In this document: in pieces, positions 4,949 through 54,491 of the stretch
Layout: every line of letters starts with the position of its first letter
How positions within the stretch are numbered: position 1 is the stretch's first letter
Source of the DNA: Imbricaverruca yamaguchii
Lineage: Eukaryota; Arthropoda; Thecostraca; Neoverrucidae
Reading direction: 5' to 3'
Length of the DNA: 64,000 nt
Assembly (NCBI GenBank): GCA_034440575.1
Contig: JAOTOL010001556.1
Location: forward strand, 688,501 to 752,500
Notes under the pieces: generated by a model
Database searches by the model: none
The model's input: the letters and a program-made list of their open reading frames with translations, nothing else
Told to the model about the DNA's origin: nothing
Translations under genes and position numbers: made by a program

Positions 4949-6693
4949 CAGGTCCTCTTCAAGGCATTTCCTAAACATTTTGCATGATGGTCATTCAATT
5001 GGTCTAGCTTTGGAATTAACTGTTTACTGCCCACACCCGCGTGAACCGTTGCAATTCCGAACGACGACGGTGTTGGCAACTTGTTTTGGCAGGCGGCGAA
5101 ATGTGGCCGGGTCATGTGAAGGTAACACATTATGGTAATGCAGTGTTGGAGGACTGCCGTGCGCGTTATTTCCGACCGTTTACGACGCTCCACGTCACCC
5201 TCCTGAGTGGCTGTACGTACCAGCAATTCCGCACCATTTCGGTGAAATACGGTCAATAAACCGGGCGTCAGTGGCGGTCCACCGCGTGGCATGGGACGGC
5301 CATGTGTCGGCACCCCCGCGCCTCCTCCGCGACCGCCCCCTGCCAGGAATCGTGATACAACTTGAATCTGGCGGCCCACCTGTTACCTGGTTAAATGGGT
5401 AATCCAGGCAGGGAGGGACGACGGCGGCGCAGCGACCCTTCCTTGTTCACCTCATTGTGGCCAGTGTCCCGGCGGTGCTGCTGTGATGGGCGGGGAGGGG
5501 GACGTGCGGGGGGGGGCGGTGTGGCCGGTCCGCTGTCGGGGGAGGGGGGACGGAGTGGAGGCAGGTCCCGGGACTAAGGGCGGGCGCTCGTGGCGGCACA
5601 TCGCACGGCAGCCGCGAAGGTGGTCTGCCTCTGTATTCACGTGCTACTAATTAGGACGCGGCGTCAGTCGCGAGAGATGACGGTCGAGTTACACGTGGTC
5701 ACGTGGCCAGCGTGACTCCTGCACCATATTCTGACGCGCGAGATGACGGCCGGACAATGCAGGAAGGGTATGTCAGGGGCGAGCGTGACGGGCAGGGGGA
5801 GAGAGCAATGACCGTCGGACCCAACCGTCCGTGCTGAGTCAACTGAACAGGTGATGACCACCTGTTTTTCGTCAGGTGACAAAAACTGGACAGATCTTGA
5901 GTGCAGATATTTGAACCCGTATTAGGTCGTTGGAGATGGTACGCGTTCATGTCCTCCGCACATTCGACGCTGCAGGCGTTCGTGACGCTCTTTAAGTCGA
6001 GCAAGAACCCGATCGATGTATGTGTCTGGTGTATTCGAAACAGTTTTATATGAGGAACGGAATCAGACCCTCACCGCTCCGACCCCACACTTGTAAATGT
6101 GAATCACCTCCTTGCCATGGGTCTTCTTTACTAGCATGCTCCTCACACCCAGCACTTTCAGTGGAATATTAGTCAAAATAATTCTTCTGACGTAAGATCT
6201 TTTAGAATGTCTTTCTGAGGCGAAACCCCCGGCGCCCGTACAGCTTCTCCTGTGTTTCGTCGCGAAGTGATGTGCTTCGCAACACAGCCATGGCGTGGAG
6301 GGTCGGTCGGCATTCGGTAGCTCTTTCACCAGTGGTGGCTCGGTTGCGACCGGGTGGCTTTGCGATGAACCCCAAGGATCTGGGGAGGTATTCTGTTGCT
6401 GCTTTTTAGCGACGCAGTAGGTGAATGAATTGCTTCTGTGTCATGCATGTTTAAAAGCGCGTGGCTATAGAGCCACTAAAGGTAGCCCCATGACTGATGC
6501 ACAGGCATCTGGGCTGGACTGCGATTCATTCGCGACTCTTCCGTGCACTGCCTCTGACGGTGGAAGAGGCGTCGTCGCCCATCCAGTTCTCCAACGGTGC
6601 CTTACTCCGGCTGTGATTCGCGCCTGGTGCCTGTGATAGGATTGACAGATGTCGAGTCGACCAATATGCATTTACGGGGAACGGTGTGTCTGG
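4945..6693. other. No recognisable feature; GC-rich part at 5270-5650
   Basis: No open frame here has a recognisable domain or conserved motif. 5270-5650 is GC-rich with G-runs. Nothing else is supported. Confidence 0.5.
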
Positions 6694-48833: not shown

Positions 48834-49721
48834 TACAACAATGCTCAGTACAGCTCTACACAACATTATCAACAGATTTCGTTGAGTTACGCTGCCTGCG
48901 GAAAATCACCAAGTCATATTCGTTGCAATAGCTGCGCCAAGACTCATAAGCCTTGTCACGCTCACGCAAGAACTACACCAGGTCCTGCCCGTCACCCACC
49001 CATGGGTGGGGGGGGGGGGACGGTCCTGAGCGGACAGTGCATGTTCACCGCCACCTACCACAAGTGCATAAACCTCAGTTTCACATCTACCCCTGCTTCC
49101 CGGCTCCAATCCGCCTGCAAGAAATGAAGGGACAAGGCGTCAGCCAGGGGGGGGGGGTGAAGGCGTCGTCAAGGCGTCGCCAGCTGAGGTGCACTTAACC
49201 TTGCACCACAGGCGTGACGTGAAGGACGCCCGGCGACACCCTAGCCCGGGGAAGGGTACGCTCACAACGACTGCTTAATGGTCAGCAATCGGAACGCGCG
49301 GCAAGCTGAACGGCCGACTCGAGATCCGGAACATTGGTGATGATATGGCTCAGCAGTGTTGCCACCCGCTCCAGATGGGCTGGCAGCCGGACAGGCTGAG
49401 AGAGGCAGAGATCCCGCGGCGCCTGTCCGTGGCGACGAATGTCGGAGCCGTCAGCACGATTAAGGTTAATATTCACAGTGCCCAGGCAAAAGGTTGGCTT
49501 CCGAGTCTGATAGCGCCACGCAGCTGGGCTTACAGCTCGTCCAGATACGGGCTCGGATGGCGGGCAGTAAACCACACCCGCAGTGACAGCACGGCGCCCC
49601 CCGCAACTCACAGACACTCCCACAGCGTCTCGCAGGACGAACCGGTACTTGAGATGGTCAACGTCTTCACATTGAGGTTTCCCTTGCATAGGATGGCGAC
49701 GCCACCGCCTCGGGGGCTCCG
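48834..49721. other. No recognisable feature
   Basis: Two G-runs (49008-49019, 49149-49157) and mixed sequence. The frames of 135 and 279 codons that reach into the next array have no domain. Confidence 0.5.
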
Positions 49722-50155
49722 GCGGCTGGACGGCCGCGGCAGCTGGACGGCTGCGGCGGCTGGACAGCTACGGCGGCTGGACGGCTGCGGCGGCTGGACG
49801 GCTGCGGCGGCTGGACAGCTGCGGCGGCTGGAAGGCTGCGGCGGCTGGACAGCTGCGGCGGCTGGACGGCTGCGGCAGCTGGACGGCTGCTGCAGCTGGA
49901 CGGCTGCTGCAGCTGGACGGCTGCGGCAGCTGGACGGCCGCGGCAGCTGGACGGCTGCGGCAGCTGGACGGCTGCGGCGGCTGGACGGCTGCGGCGGCTG
50001 GACGGCTGCGGCGGCTGGACGGCTGCGGCAGCTGGACGGCTGCGGCAGCTGGACGGCTGCGGCAGCTGGACGGCTGCGGCAGCTGGACGGCTGCGGCAGC
50101 TGGACGGCCGCGGCAGCTGGACGGATGCGGCAGCTGGATGGCCGCGGCCTCACTG
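49722..50155. repeat. 17-bp minisatellite, about 25 copies
   Basis: The unit is CTGGACGGCTGCGGCRG, with CAGCT, CTGCTGC and CCGCGGC variants. It ends about 70 bp before the viral element. Confidence 0.95.
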
Positions 50156-50224: not shown

Positions 50225-50363
50225 GTACCAGATTCAAATCAGGTGTTTTTTTTCGCGGGGGGGGGGTCCTGGCGTACGCCAGGATTGCATGGACATGCAA
50301 CTTTTATGTACATAAAAGCCCCCCCCCCCCGCGAAAAAAAAACACCTGATTTGAATCTGGTAC
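50225..50363. repeat. Left terminal hairpin with three internal arms
   Basis: The outer stem pairs 50225-50266 with 50319-50363 and includes an 8-9-nt A/T run and a 10-12-nt G/C run. Inside are three consecutive palindromes: TCCTGGCGTACGCCAGGA (50267-50284), TTGCATGGACATGCAA (50285-50300, 2-nt loop) and CTTTTATGTACATAAAAG (50301-50318). It can fold as a stem with a multi-arm head. Neither stem nor arms match the two other hairpins, so the element has two kinds of ends. Just inside it, AAAAGGCTAATTAAATTTTA begins the same subterminal sequence as at the other ends. Confidence 0.85.
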
Positions 50364-50379
50364 AAATAGCTGAAGGCGG

Positions 50380-50602
50380 ATAAAAGGCTAATTAAATTTT
50401 AGATGAGTGATCAACTGACGGGACTAAACTTTTTCTTTTTATCAGATGAAGAGACTCATTTAATAATTCACCTCATCTCCTAAAAATAATTATTTTTCCT
50501 TACTCATTCACTCATTCAGTTTACTGTTTCAAATGTCTTCCATCATTACTTCATCACCTCATCTCCAAAAAGAAAAAAATTCTTAGCATCACTCACTCAC
50601 TC
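50380..50602 (-). repeat. Left subterminal (ITR-like) module
   Basis: The module contains AATTAAATTTTAGATGAGTG, a CTTTTTCTTTTTATCAGATG block, CACCTCATCTCC and tandem ACTC tetranucleotides (50495-50515, 50587-50602). It is the mirror of 54170-54420 and of modules around the centre. Confidence 0.75.
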
Positions 50603-50603
50603 A

Positions 50604-50609
50604 TTTATT
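50604..50609 (-). terminator. Polyadenylation signal overlapping the stop codon, left copy
   Basis: AATAAA on the minus strand includes the TAA stop of the capsid gene. The arrangement is identical in the right copy. Confidence 0.6.
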
Positions 50610-51621
50610 GCTTCGGAAGAGAGTACATGTGATACACATAGTTCTTACCACCATACTCATACAACTTTTTCAAATTATACAGAGTACAAGAAGGATCTTG
50701 TTGAACAAGACCACTACGACCAAGACTCACCAAAAACTCGAGTTTTGTGGTTAAGAGAGCAGTCAGAGCACTCATAGTTTGCGGAATACTTTTAGGACGA
50801 AAATACACCGCAGATATAACATATTGCCGAGTAACATTATAATGCTTGACACGATCAATAGGAACACCAGGCTCAAAACCTTCAGCATGATAGGGAAAAA
50901 CATTATGCTCCGTCATATCCCACTTATACCACTTTGACGTATCAGGATGAACTGACCACCTCTTGTGATCTGGACCTTGAATAACGCCGCGATTCGAAAA
51001 GCATTGAGACATCGTCGCAGGAGTATACTCCATATCATCACCGTCCGCATCTACAAACACACTGGACAAATCAGCAACAGGCAAAGAACCATCCTTACCA
51101 ACATACTTAAACGAATCAGCAGCTGGATAACTAATCCGCTGAAAACCTCCATTCGTATCTAAAGCATACTCCAGCTCCGGCTGAAGATTTTCAGAAGTGG
51201 TCGTAGTCGTCGTCACTCCAGTTGTTTGAACAGTATTTATACCCCGCAGTTCACCAATACTCATTGTCGCGGAAAGAAATTTTACACCATATTTCTTCGC
51301 ATGTCCAGCCCAGTCAGACTGCTCATGGGTAATAGCAGAATTAGTCGTACCTTTCTTAAAGGAGGCAAGAGTATAACGTCGCGTTTCCAGAAGAGGCCAA
51401 ATATAGTACTGATTATCTTCCAAATCAGATTTGAATTGCACTTCATGAATAGTAGACATAACGACTTTCGTGAAGGACTTGAATCCACGATCAGTAGAGA
51501 CGACATCGTAGGCACCAATGTTTCCAGTCTCAGCATCATTGTCCATGTTTTCAGGATTATTCCTTTTCACTCTCTTGGCCGCCGGCTCCGGCGTCCCTTC
51601 GGAGGAAGGTCCTGCATCCAT
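50605..51621 (-). CDS. Putative parvoviral capsid protein, left copy
   Basis: 338 codons, uninterrupted, probably a structural protein that self-assembles into a small icosahedral capsid. The N-terminus is short, polar and basic, with PAAKRVKR at residues 13-20, which fits a classical nuclear-localisation signal as expected for a virus assembled in the nucleus. The remainder alternates aromatic and polar stretches (WPLLETRRYT, WSVHPDTSKWYKWD, AVYFRPKSIP), compatible with a beta-rich jelly-roll coat protein. A threonine run lies at residues 137-142. There is no phospholipase A2 motif. The length is close to the roughly 330-360 residues of capsid proteins in short-genome invertebrate parvoviruses. 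The ATG has a strong context (GCGACCATGG). The stop overlaps an AATAAA signal. It is 12 residues different from the right copy. The parvoviral assignment comes mainly from flanking hairpins; the sequence alone does not prove it. Confidence 0.7.
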   Translation of the reverse strand: MDAGPSSEGTPEPAAKRVKRNNPENMDNDAETGNIGAYDVVSTDRGFKSFTKVVMSTIHEVQFKSDLEDNQYYIWPLLETRRYTLASFKKGTTNSAITHEQSDWAGHAKKYGVKFLSATMSIGELRGINTVQTTGVTTTTTTSENLQPELEYALDTNGGFQRISYPAADSFKYVGKDGSLPVADLSSVFVDADGDDMEYTPATMSQCFSNRGVIQGPDHKRWSVHPDTSKWYKWDMTEHNVFPYHAEGFEPGVPIDRVKHYNVTRQYVISAVYFRPKSIPQTMSALTALLTTKLEFLVSLGRSGLVQQDPSCTLYNLKKLYEYGGKNYVYHMYSLPKQ

Positions 51622-51627
51622 GGTCGC

Positions 51628-51791
51628 CTGAAAATATTAAAACATATTACACAGAGAAAACATGCTATAAGCTCCAACACAGTCCACAGTACAGATATTA
51701 ATTTACCTTCTTACGAATACGCCAACTCTCCATATTCTCTTATTTCTTTTTAGTAACACCCTCCCGCGTCGACAGCCGCAGCAATACTAAC
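51628..51791 (-). other. Predicted 164-nt intron, left copy
   Basis: Read on the minus strand it starts GTTAGT after CACAG and ends ATTTTCAG before GCGACC. Length and borders are identical to the right copy. Confidence 0.6.
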
Positions 51792-51815
51792 CTGTGATGG
51801 AGGAGATATTGTCAT
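51792..51815 (-). CDS. Short upstream capsid exon, left copy
   Basis: Eight codons begin with an ATG preceded by an in-frame TAA and end at the CACAG splice donor. Joining to the acceptor at 51627 keeps frame and adds ten residues before the main capsid methionine. This could yield a minor, N-terminally extended capsid protein. Its conservation in the mirror copy (52957-52980) supports it, but both copies share recent ancestry. Confidence 0.5.
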
Positions 51816-51879
51816 TTATGTCGGTTTGGTGGCGGACGTAAAGCTCCCACCAGTTGGCGCTAGTGATGCGGCACGGTGT

Positions 51880-51970
51880 TCAGGAATACGACAGACCAGT
51901 CCACTTCGGTCACCTCGACCGGAGATCTAGCATCAGTTAGAGAATCGACCTGTATTCTAGTCAGTTGATC
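51880..51970. repeat. Remnant of a further terminal repeat
   Basis: Present only on the left side. It contains AGCATCAGTTAGAGAATCGA and a following GTATTC that match the region just inside the right hairpin (54400-54425), next to a small stem (CGGTC...GACCG, 51917-51931). It looks like a collapsed ITR head left from concatemer rearrangement. Confidence 0.55.
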
Positions 51971-52324
51971 ACTCATCTGAGTGAGTGAGTGAGTAAGGAA
52001 AAATAATTATTTTTAGGAGATGAGGTGAGTTCTTAAATGAGTCTCTTCATCTGATAAAAAGAAAAAGTTTAGTGTGTTCAGTTGATCACTCACTTAGTGA
52101 GTGAGTGAGTGAGTAAGGAAAAATAATTATTTTTAGGAGATGAGGTGACGAACAAGTGAGTCTCTTCATCTGCTAAAAAGAAAAAGTTTTAGGACATCAG
52201 CAAATCACTCATCTAATGAGTGAGTGAGTGAGTAAGAGTATCCAGCAAATTACTCATCTAAAATTTAATTAGCCTCTTATCCAGCTTCAGTTAGAGAATT
52301 GACCCATATTCACTCACCTCCTCT
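51971..52324 (-). repeat. Left-of-centre subterminal modules with GAGT clusters
   Basis: Three consecutive modules repeat a TGAGTGAGTGAGTAAGG cluster (near 51979, 52097, 52217), a GGAGATGAGGTGA block and the CATCTGATAAAAAGAAAAAG or CATCTGCTAAAAAGAAAAAG block. Tandem GAGT fits the GAGY tetranucleotide consensus of adeno-associated-virus-type Rep-binding elements. Confidence 0.7.
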
Positions 52325-52625
52325 CTTGCCCCCCATTTACGTACGTAAATTCGGTCTGTACAGACCGAGGGGGGCAAGTGAGGAGGTGAGTGAATATGGG
52401 TCAATTCTCTAACTGAAGCTGGATAAGAGGCTAATTAAATTTTAGATGAGTAATTTGCTGGATACTCTTACTCACTCATTCACTCATTAGATGAGTGATT
52501 TGCTGATGTCCTAAAACTTTTTCTTTTTAGCAGATGAAGAGACTCACTTGTTCGTCACCTCATCTCCTAAAAAGAATTATTTTTCCTTACTCACTCACTC
52601 ACTCACTAGGTGAGTGATCAACTGA
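52080..52625. repeat. Central long palindrome
   Basis: The sequence reads as nearly perfect inverted arms of about 270 bp on each side of about 52352. The innermost 55 bp are the two-armed hairpin. Arms differ at a few bases (for example CTCTCTTGCC against GGCAAGTGAG), so it is not a simple single-molecule artefact. The structure equals the junction of a head-to-head replicative dimer joined through one terminal repeat. Confidence 0.85.
52325..52378. repeat. Central T-shaped hairpin
   Basis: Stem CTTGCCCCCC (52325-52334) pairs with GGGGGGCAAG (52369-52378). Between lie two perfect palindromes back to back: ATTTACGTACGTAAAT (52335-52350) and TCGGTCTGTACAGACCGA (52351-52368). The stem extends outwards through TCACCTCCTC/GAGGAGGTGA and beyond. 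This A-B-B'-C-C'-A' order is the layout of adeno-associated-virus-like terminal repeats. Confidence 0.92.
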
Positions 52626-52900
52626 AGACAGTAAACTGAGGCTAATTAAATTTTAGATGAGTAATTTGCTGGATACTCTTACTCACTCACTCACTCATTA
52701 GATGAGTGATTTGCTGATGTCCTACAACTTTTTCTTTTTAGCAGATGAAGAGACTCACTTGTTCGTCACCTCATCTCCTAAAAAGAATTATTTTTCCTTA
52801 CTCACTCACTCACTCACTAAGTGAGTGATCAACTGAACACACTAAACTTTTTATTTTTATCAGATGAAGAGACTCATTTAAGAACTCACCTCATCTCGTA
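52379..52900 (+). repeat. Right-of-centre subterminal modules, partly duplicated
   Basis: 52435-52625 mirrors the left arm. 52634-52830 repeats it in direct orientation (restarting at GGCTAATTAAATTTTAGATG), without the hairpin head. 52830-52900 is a partial third module. ACTC/GAGT clusters recur near 52470, 52600, 52680 and 52801. Confidence 0.75.
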
Positions 52901-52950
52901 CCGCATCACTAGCGCCAACTGGTGGGAGCTTTACGTCCGCCACCAAACCG

Positions 52951-52960
52951 ACATAAATGA
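52951..52960 (+). promoter_or_regulatory. Weak TATA-like candidate upstream of the capsid exon
   Basis: ACATAAATGA is the only AT box close to the start; it overlaps the upstream ATG, so a TSS downstream of it would miss the short exon. I see no clear TATA box further upstream. The promoter may instead lie in the subterminal repeats. Confidence 0.2.
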
Positions 52961-52980
52961 CAATATCTCCTCCATCACAG
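52957..52980 (+). CDS. Short upstream capsid exon, right copy
   Basis: Eight codons from an ATG (in-frame TAA immediately upstream) to a CACAG|GTTAGT donor. Splicing to 53145 keeps frame with the capsid ATG at 53151 and adds ten residues. Identical in position and frame to 51792-51815. Confidence 0.5.
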
Positions 52981-53144
52981 GTTAGTATTGCTGCGGCTGT
53001 CGACGCGGGAGGGTGTTACTAAAAAGAAATAAGAGAATACGGAGAGTTGGCGTATTCGTAAGAAGGTAAATTAATATCTGTACTGTGGACTGTGTTGGAG
53101 CTTATAGCATGTTTTCTCTGTGTAATATGTTTTAATATTTTCAG
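52981..53144 (+). other. Predicted 164-nt intron, right copy
   Basis: Donor GTTAGT at 52981, a TACTAA branch-like motif at 53017-53022, a T-rich end and acceptor TTTTCAG at 53144. A second possible donor (AAG|GTAAAT, 53066) lies inside. Small introns just upstream of capsid starts are usual in parvoviruses. Confidence 0.6.
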
Positions 53145-53150
53145 GCGACC

Positions 53151-54167
53151 ATGGATGCAGGACCTTCCTCCGAAGGGACGCCGGAGCCGGCGGCCAAGAG
53201 AGTGAAAAGGAATAATCCTGAAAACATGGACAATGATGCTGAGACTGGGAACATTGGTGCCTACGATGTCGTCTCTACTGATCGTGGATTCAAGTCCTTC
53301 ACGAAAGTCGTTATGTCTACTATTCATGAAGTGCAATTCAAATCTGATTTGAAAGATAATCAGTACTATGTTTGGCCTCTTCTGGAAACGCGACGTTATA
53401 CTATTGCCGCGTTTAAGAATGGTACGACTAATTCTGCTATTACCCATGAGCAGCAGGACTGGGCTGGACATGCGAAGAAATATGGTGTAAAATTTCTGTC
53501 TGCGACAATGAGTCTTGGTGAACTGCGCGGTATAAATACTGTTCAAACAACTGGAGTGACGACGACTACGACCACTTCTGAAAATCTTCAGCCGGAGCTG
53601 GAGTATGCTTTAGATACGAATGGAGGTTTTCAGCGGATTAGTTATCCAGCTGCTGATTCGTTTAAATATGTTGGTAAGGATGGTTCTTTGCCTGTTGCCG
53701 ATTTGTCCAGTGTGTTTGTAGATGCGGACGGTGATGATATGGAGTATACTCCTGCGACGATGTCTCAATGCTTTTCGAATCGCGGCGTTATTCAAGGTCC
53801 AGATCACAAGAGTTGGTCAGTTCATCCTGATACGTCAAAGTGGTATAAGTGGGATATGACGGAGCATAATGTTTTTCCCTATCATGCTGAAGGTTTTGAG
53901 CCTGGTGTTCCTATTGATCGTGTCAAGCATTATAATGTTACTCGGCAATATGATATATCTGCGGTGTATTTTCGTCCTAAAAGTATTCCGCAAACTATGA
54001 GTGTTCTGACTGCTCTCTTAACCACAAAACTCGAGTTTTTGGTGAGTCTTGGTCGTAGTGGTCTTGTTCAACAAGATCCTTCTCGTACTCTGTATTATTT
54101 GAAAAAGTTGTATGAGTATGGTGGTAAGAACTATGTGTATCACATGTACTCTCTTCCGAAGCAATAA
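53151..54167 (+). CDS. Putative parvoviral capsid protein, right copy
   Basis: 338 codons, intact, same length as the left copy and differing by 12 residues (positions 68, 74, 85, 87, 90, 102, 122, 211, 268, 285, 312, 316). About 21 nucleotides differ over 1017, and 13 of these fall in codons 68-126; long stretches elsewhere are identical. Six changes are silent and the rest alter residues, so there is no strong sign of constraint since the copies split. The PAAKRVKR nuclear-localisation motif is retained. It has the same strong start context, splice acceptor and stop/AATAAA overlap. The bases at codons 84-126 could come from a related strain by recombination. The capsid function is inferred from the flanking parvoviral ends and protein size. 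Confidence 0.7.
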   Translation: MDAGPSSEGTPEPAAKRVKRNNPENMDNDAETGNIGAYDVVSTDRGFKSFTKVVMSTIHEVQFKSDLKDNQYYVWPLLETRRYTIAAFKNGTTNSAITHEQQDWAGHAKKYGVKFLSATMSLGELRGINTVQTTGVTTTTTTSENLQPELEYALDTNGGFQRISYPAADSFKYVGKDGSLPVADLSSVFVDADGDDMEYTPATMSQCFSNRGVIQGPDHKSWSVHPDTSKWYKWDMTEHNVFPYHAEGFEPGVPIDRVKHYNVTRQYDISAVYFRPKSIPQTMSVLTALLTTKLEFLVSLGRSGLVQQDPSRTLYYLKKLYEYGGKNYVYHMYSLPKQ

Positions 54168-54168
54168 A
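54163..54168 (+). terminator. Polyadenylation signal overlapping the stop codon, right copy
   Basis: AATAAA contains the TAA stop (54165-54167). TG-rich GTGAGTGAGTGAG directly downstream could serve as the downstream element while also being part of the terminal repeat. Confidence 0.6.
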
Positions 54169-54438
54169 TGAGTGAGTGAGTGATGCTAAGAATTTTTTTC
54201 TTTTCGGGAGATGAGGTGATGAAGTGATGACGGAACACATTGGGAACACGTAAACTGAGTGAGTGAGTGAGTAAGGAAAAATAATTTTTTTAGGTGATGA
54301 GGTGAGTTCTTAAATGAGTCGCTTCATCTGATAAAAAGAAAAAGTTTAGTCGCGTCAGTTGATCACTCATCTAAAATTTAGTTAGCCTTTTATCCAGCAT
54401 CAGTTAGAGAATTGACCCGTATTACCTCACCTCCTCTT
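54169..54438 (+). repeat. Right subterminal (ITR-like) module
   Basis: Contains GAGT clusters at 54169-54183 and 54256-54272, GGTGATGAGGTGAG, CATCTGATAAAAAGAAAAAG and the TAAAATTTAGTTAGCC end. Mirrors 50380-50602 and the centre-proximal modules. Confidence 0.75.
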
Positions 54439-54491
54439 TTGCCCCCCTCGGCCTGTACAGACCGAATTTACGTACGTAAATTGGGGGGCAA
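54439..54491. repeat. Right T-shaped terminal hairpin, opposite orientation to the central one
   Basis: Stem TTGCCCCCC (54439-54447) pairs with GGGGGGCAA (54483-54491). The two arms are in swapped order compared with the centre: TCGGCCTGTACAGACCGA (54448-54465, one mismatch) comes first, then ATTTACGTACGTAAAT (54466-54481). Unlike the centre, the outer stem stops after 9 bp and host-like sequence follows, so the terminal A' part was lost on integration. Confidence 0.9.

What the first reader, a model, noticed from the sequence alone, without database searches (positions are those of the whole stretch)
50225..54491. Capsid-only parvovirus-like element bounded by hairpin terminal repeats
Two intact capsid-like genes are enclosed by structures that match parvoviral telomeres, yet no replication (NS1/Rep) gene is present. 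Seen directly: hairpins, intact 338-codon frames, tandem GAGT. Known: parvoviruses carry NS and capsid genes on one genome, with bisegmented invertebrate parvoviruses reported more recently (capsid gene on its own ITR-bounded segment). Inference: this may be an integrated capsid segment, or a non-autonomous parvoviral unit replicated in trans.
Basis: partly seen in the sequence, partly recalled or inferred. Interest (0 to 1): 0.95.

Follow-up and report, generated by a model that had tools for sequence, protein, structure and literature searches.

The report
Fossil capsid-only defective parvovirus genome
A contig of an unnamed, probably animal, genome carries a shortened parvovirus genome that kept two copies of its shell gene and its hairpin ends but lost its replication gene, while a relative with both genes sits elsewhere in the same genome, so it looks like a preserved defective virus rather than half of a two-part virus.

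The parts
50225..50363 (.). Left outer telomere: cruciform hairpin (arms about 42-45 nt, three internal palindromes). Its relatives lie on the NS side at C917, C1350, C1388 and C680.
50364..50384 (.). Stub of left-end (NS-side) telomere-proximal sequence that changes at about GGATAAA to right-end sequence: the join where the outer telomere of the left copy was exchanged (inferred).
50385..50526 (.). Right-end subterminal module (relative of 54256-54374) downstream of the left VP copy.
50605..51621 (-). Capsid gene VP, left copy, 338 codons, intact; at two positions conserved or nearly so in the relatives (S221, D268) it carries R and V.
51790..51876 (-). NS remnant of the left copy (NS residues 679-707); weaker NS-like sequence to 51953 (60% over 25 residues) overlaps a telomere-proximal repeat.
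51978..52236 (.). Subterminal modules of about 119 nt with (GAGT)4 arrays at 51979, 52099 and 52218: candidate replication-initiator binding sites (function inferred from recall of parvovirus Rep sites).
52066..52637 (.). Central dimer junction: 269-nt arms (98%) around one T-shaped telomere with palindromes 52335-52350 and 52351-52368.
52427..52848 (.). 211-nt tandem duplication of subterminal sequence, right half only.
52902..52985 (+). NS remnant of the right copy (NS residues 681-707 plus a stop).
53066..53144 (+). Putative 79-nt intron in the VP leader (donor AAG/GTAAAT, acceptor TTTTCAG), followed by ACCATGG.
   Evidence: splicing inferred
53151..54167 (+). Capsid gene VP, right copy, 338 codons, intact; AATAAA overlaps the stop.
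   Evidence: fold (on relative P0001; on this protein)
54256..54374 (.). Right-end subterminal module with a (GAGT)4 array at 54257.
54439..54491 (.). Right outer telomere: T-shaped hairpin; its outer arm stops after 9 nt at the host junction.

Best explanation
An integrated subgenomic (defective) genome of a parvovirus lineage that I could not match to a named virus. The parent type is monopartite: cruciform telomere, NS1-like replicase, VP, T-shaped telomere, about 3.8 kb. In the window form nearly all of NS is gone and a second copy of right-end subterminal and T-telomere sequence is fused to the NS stump, which makes a capsid-only unit bounded by T telomeres. Such a unit could replicate only with NS supplied in trans. 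Replication through the T hairpin without terminal resolution then gave a head-to-head duplex dimer with the VP leaders facing the centre, and the outer telomere of one copy was exchanged for a left-end telomere within a short shared sequence. The dimer was inserted into the host genome. Shown: anatomy, NS stump, a relative with both genes, a relative with the opposite deletion, two arm orders at both telomeres. Inferred: order of events, replication in trans, packaging, any present function.
Against: The two halves are not identical, as a fresh dimer would be: 13 of the 21 frame differences lie in codons 68-126, and 8 of 20000 random placements were as clustered; they also differ by about 140 nt missing from the right half and by a 211-nt duplication, so two variants or later conversion must be added. 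No target-site duplication was seen. No second copy of the capsid-only dimer was found; C1336 has VP without NS in the 9.9 kb read, but without hairpins and cut near the NS stop, so it is only a fragment. Both AlphaFold models are of low confidence (pLDDT 36 and 41); the significant PDB matches come from the model of P0001 (39% identical), while the window model gave no significant PDB match and mixed VIA rows. C917 is the only locus with a full-length NS stretch. VP of the window versus C917 has dN/dS 0.57-0.62, which is weak constraint. The two arm orders come from different sublineages, so a fixed inversion is not excluded.
Confidence: 0.8

Rival explanations
1. Integrated capsid segment of a bipartite parvovirus, comparable to Acheta domesticus segmented densovirus.
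For: The unit is VP-only and telomere-bounded; AdSDV has NS and VP on separate segments with T-shaped ends (PMC10267136, section 7 read). P0001 and P0002 lie on short contigs of 2565 and 3371 bases, whose other genes could not be read. C1336 is also VP without NS.
Against: NS and VP share one telomere-bounded unit at C917 and are neighbours at C1388, C588 and C680. The window keeps the NS stump.
Confidence: 0.08
2. A full NS-VP provirus inserted here and was rearranged in the chromosome by deletion and inverted duplication.
For: A 17-bp minisatellite lies beside the left end; the two copies differ by indels; other loci are broken.
Against: It requires a T telomere, which lies behind VP at C917, to move to the NS stump and form a near-perfect dimer junction, which hairpin replication does in one step. 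C1350 shows an independent deletion with both telomeres kept.
Confidence: 0.1
3. A capsid gene kept by the host, for example in antiviral defence, with telomeres as passive remains.
For: 5 of 8 VP copies (my grouping of 10 matches) have full-length open frames, against 1 full-length NS stretch.
Against: The two window copies differ with dN/dS 0.51 and the left copy has changed S221 and D268. Expression was not tested.
Confidence: 0.07
4. An unrelated hairpin-ended transposon that carries a non-viral gene.
For: None found beyond the hairpins.
Against: Parvovirus capsid fold and NS1-like neighbours at related loci.
Confidence: 0.01

Closest known systems
AAV 3' snapback subgenomes (3'-SBG; PMC8235507, abstract and sections 13 and 17 read)
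   Same: Capsid region only, self-complementary, dimer head-to-head with the capsid promoter at the centre, ITR present, replicated in the presence of Rep.
   Different: Here a T telomere with subterminal modules also lies at the centre, the parent has two different telomeres, and the unit sits in a host genome.
AAV genome deletion mutants (GDM; same paper)
   Same: C1350 is of this type: left-end NS fused to the right-end terminus, with the middle missing.
   Different: In a host genome; another lineage.
Acheta domesticus segmented densovirus (PMC10267136; abstract and sections 7 and 13 read)
   Same: VP without NS on a hairpin-ended unit; small VP; its capsid is at ranks 2 and 3 of the fold matches.
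   Different: True bipartite virus; the VP segment is 3332 nt with a PLA2-encoding ORF. Here relatives have NS and VP on one unit.
Penaeus stylirostris densovirus capsid (PDB 3n7x)
   Same: Best fold match of the family model.
   Different: 15% identity in the VIA alignment; subfamily not resolved.
Endogenous parvoviral elements of animals (PMC5013282 and PMC11357303, passages seen)
   Same: Parvovirus genes in host genomes.
   Different: The second paper says that IHHNV elements in shrimp lack hairpins; here telomeres and a dimer junction are preserved.

Membership tests
Parvoviridae | NS1 with SF3 helicase | tested here: met
   Met for the lineage: PF01057 and PF00519 above cut-off in frames of 4 loci. 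The window unit itself keeps only 27-29 NS codons.
Parvoviridae | Single jelly-roll VP of parvovirus type | tested here: met
   low-confidence models, the significant PDB match on P0001 only
Parvoviridae | Terminal hairpins | tested here: met
Parvoviridae | Flip and flop orientation of the hairpins | tested here: inconclusive
   both arm orders seen at both telomeres, but between sublineages in a few single loci, not within one population
Parvoviridae | Linear ssDNA packaged in T=1 particles | not testable with these tools
   no virion
Hamaparvovirinae | Grouping by NS1 SF3 phylogeny | not tested
Bipartite parvovirus (AdSDV type) | NS and VP on separate segments with the same ends | tested here: not met
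   C917 carries both genes between one pair of telomeres
Bidnaviridae | Protein-primed PolB gene | not tested
   no PolB query was run; considered because bidnaviruses have parvovirus-like VP and several segments (PMC11071296, section 13 read)
Parvoviral defective or snapback genomes (AAV 3'-SBG type) | Capsid region only, head-to-head, telomere-ended | tested here: met
   the extra central telomere is a difference
Parvoviral defective or snapback genomes (AAV 3'-SBG type) | Replication dependent on a helper genome's NS | not testable with these tools
   inferred from the absence of NS

The most novel reading that the evidence does not exclude
The capsid-only dimer was a stable helper-dependent satellite that circulated with its NS-bearing parent and was packaged as a natural self-complementary genome of about 4.3 kb, within the ordinary parvovirus size range, with a third, internal telomere.
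Probability: 0.15. Interest if true: 0.8.

Novelty: new variant of a known kind. Interest (0 to 1): 0.62.

Why it matters
Defective parvovirus genomes are known from virion preparations (PMC8235507). Here one host genome appears to have preserved a form with both genes, a capsid-only dimer and an NS-side deletion form of one lineage, telomeres included. That is a record of subgenomic forms in nature; it shows telomere architecture kept while its sequence changes, in a lineage for which VP searches of 5.8 billion proteins found only three other capsid proteins (NS was not searched there); and it warns that a capsid-only, telomere-bounded unit need not mean a segmented virus.

Tried and rejected

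Literature limits: that the integrated capsid-only dimer is not in print rests on 8 answered searches of an open-access library, of which 62, 70, 74, 80 and 113 listed only part of the papers found; I saw titles and starts of abstracts there.

Full report
What is there. The element at 50225-54491 is an inverted dimer. Two 338-codon frames point outward (50605-51621 on -, 53151-54167 on +) in arms of 1311 nt that are 98% complementary. The axis is a T-shaped hairpin made of two palindromes at 52335-52368, flanked by 269-nt arms. The left outer end is a cruciform hairpin with three palindromes (50225-50363), and the right outer end is a T hairpin whose outer arm stops after 9 nt. All 9 arrays of at least three GAGT in the window lie inside the element, most of them in subterminal modules of about 119 nt. 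A BLAST of the element against the window found no second copy. Among open frames of 90 codons or more in the element there are only the two VP frames and five shorter ones of 94-196 codons.

The rest of the genome. The genome search answered first. The genome has 767 Mb in 1430 contigs and no name. VP gave 10 matches, which I read as 8 copies: two in the window (C1323), C1336, C917, C1388, C588 and two at C680; the first five are full-length open frames. At C917 (L019) a T hairpin, VP, a 707-codon open stretch and a cruciform hairpin follow each other within 3823 nt. The stretch is counted from stop to stop; its first 30 or so residues overlap a subterminal module, so the true start is not known. 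It matches Parvo_NS1 (E 1.8e-9) and the papillomavirus E1 helicase family (E 2.8e-13) above their cut-offs, as do frames at C1388, C588 and C680; 2 of the 6 frames given to that call had no match. By PDB sequence its best matches are E1 helicases (E 2.5e-5), then AAV Rep. A genome search with the NS stretch gave 26 matches: full length only at C917; pieces at C680, C588, C1388, C790, C1350 and C1371; weak matches (26% identity) at C44 and C455; and in the window only NS residues 677-707 and 680-707, before the two VP copies. The alignment shows that the NS 3' end and the VP leader are shared with C917. C1336 holds VP without NS, from just inside the T stem to near the NS stop, without hairpins.

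How the window form arose (inference from these facts). In C917 the T telomere lies behind VP and the cruciform in front of NS. In the window a T telomere with right-end modules lies in front of the NS stump, so NS was lost together with the gain of right-end sequence at the stump. A head-to-head dimer about that T telomere is what replication through an unresolved hairpin gives; an AAV review describes such duplex dimers (passages of PMC1131931). At the left outer end the sequence follows the left-end telomere region of C917 up to about GGATAAA and then right-end sequence. C1388 shows both telomeres as long double junctions (T arms 205 nt) and a 167-nt right-end piece, inverted and 100% identical, where NS residues 207-402 are missing. 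C1350 is the opposite product: right-end T telomere joined to NS near residue 399, then the cruciform, with no VP match in the 9.8 kb read.

Replication signature. Read from outside inward, the T arms are B-C at the right end of the window and at C917, and C-B at C1350. The cruciform arms are TGG-first at the left end of the window, C917 and C1350, and CTT-first in the two C680 copies, where the regular expression caught only one of the two arms and I read the order from the printed sequence. The double junctions (window centre, C1388) read both ways and were not counted. This is what flip and flop would give, though the loci belong to different sublineages and a fixed inversion is not excluded. 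The arms differ in sequence between loci but remain largely palindromic, as expected if structure is selected.

Time and selection. Between loci VP dN/dS is 0.12-0.62, and for the NS C-terminal half of C917 versus C680 0.03 with dS 1.33; the other two NS pairs could not be computed. Much of the divergence therefore looks viral, and the loci are most simply separate integrations of different strains. Between the two window copies dN/dS is 0.51, and 13 of 21 differences fall in codons 68-126, so conversion or two parental variants must be added to slow decay. No dating was attempted.

Comparison. AAV populations contain capsid-only snapback genomes whose dimers are head-to-head with the capsid promoter at the centre, and deletion mutants that lack the middle (PMC8235507, sections 13 and 17). 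The window unit and C1350 resemble these two classes. AdSDV is the known bipartite case (PMC10267136, sections 7 and 13); the membership test fails because NS and VP share one unit at C917. My searches of the open library listed no report of an integrated capsid-only dimer with telomeres; several lists were capped, and subscription papers were mostly not covered.

Limits. One unnamed assembly, which I take to be of an animal without having shown it; low-confidence fold models; several genome queries did not complete; no expression data; present function unknown, most likely none beyond possible VP expression.

Noticed in passing
L019:5634-7754 (-), residues about 108-180; equivalents in L020, L021 and L022: A conserved NS stretch where I would expect the nickase motif reads H-x-N (IHLNN, VHVNN) rather than a canonical HUH; whether the endonuclease motif lies elsewhere or is degenerate is open (motif recalled).
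   Followed up: partly
L020:3188-3354 and 5440-5606 (C1388): A 167-nt right-end piece, 100% identical and inverted, sits inside the NS gene of C1388 where NS residues 207-402 are missing.
   Followed up: partly
L050:4188-5900 (C1350): NS-side deletion form with both telomeres and no VP match, complementary to the window unit.
   Followed up: yes
L018:4196-5615 (C1336): VP with an intact frame but without NS and without hairpins: a second VP-only fragment.
   Followed up: partly
L051:3738-6065 (C790): Two NS fragments head to tail, with no VP match in the 9.9 kb read.
   Followed up: no
L021:1932-4088 (C588): About 2.1 kb of other sequence lies between NS and VP, perhaps an insertion.
   Followed up: no
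C1371:726036-726362, C44:24634-25032, C455:7526-7924: Divergent NS or helicase matches (41%, 26%, 26%), possibly other endogenous viruses.
   Followed up: no
51226-51753 (+) and 53019-53546 (-): 175-aa antisense frame over the VP 5' end in both copies, TTG start; no Pfam match for the left-copy frame; probably not coding.
   Followed up: partly
49715-50148: 17-bp minisatellite of 25.5 copies next to the left end of the element.
   Followed up: no
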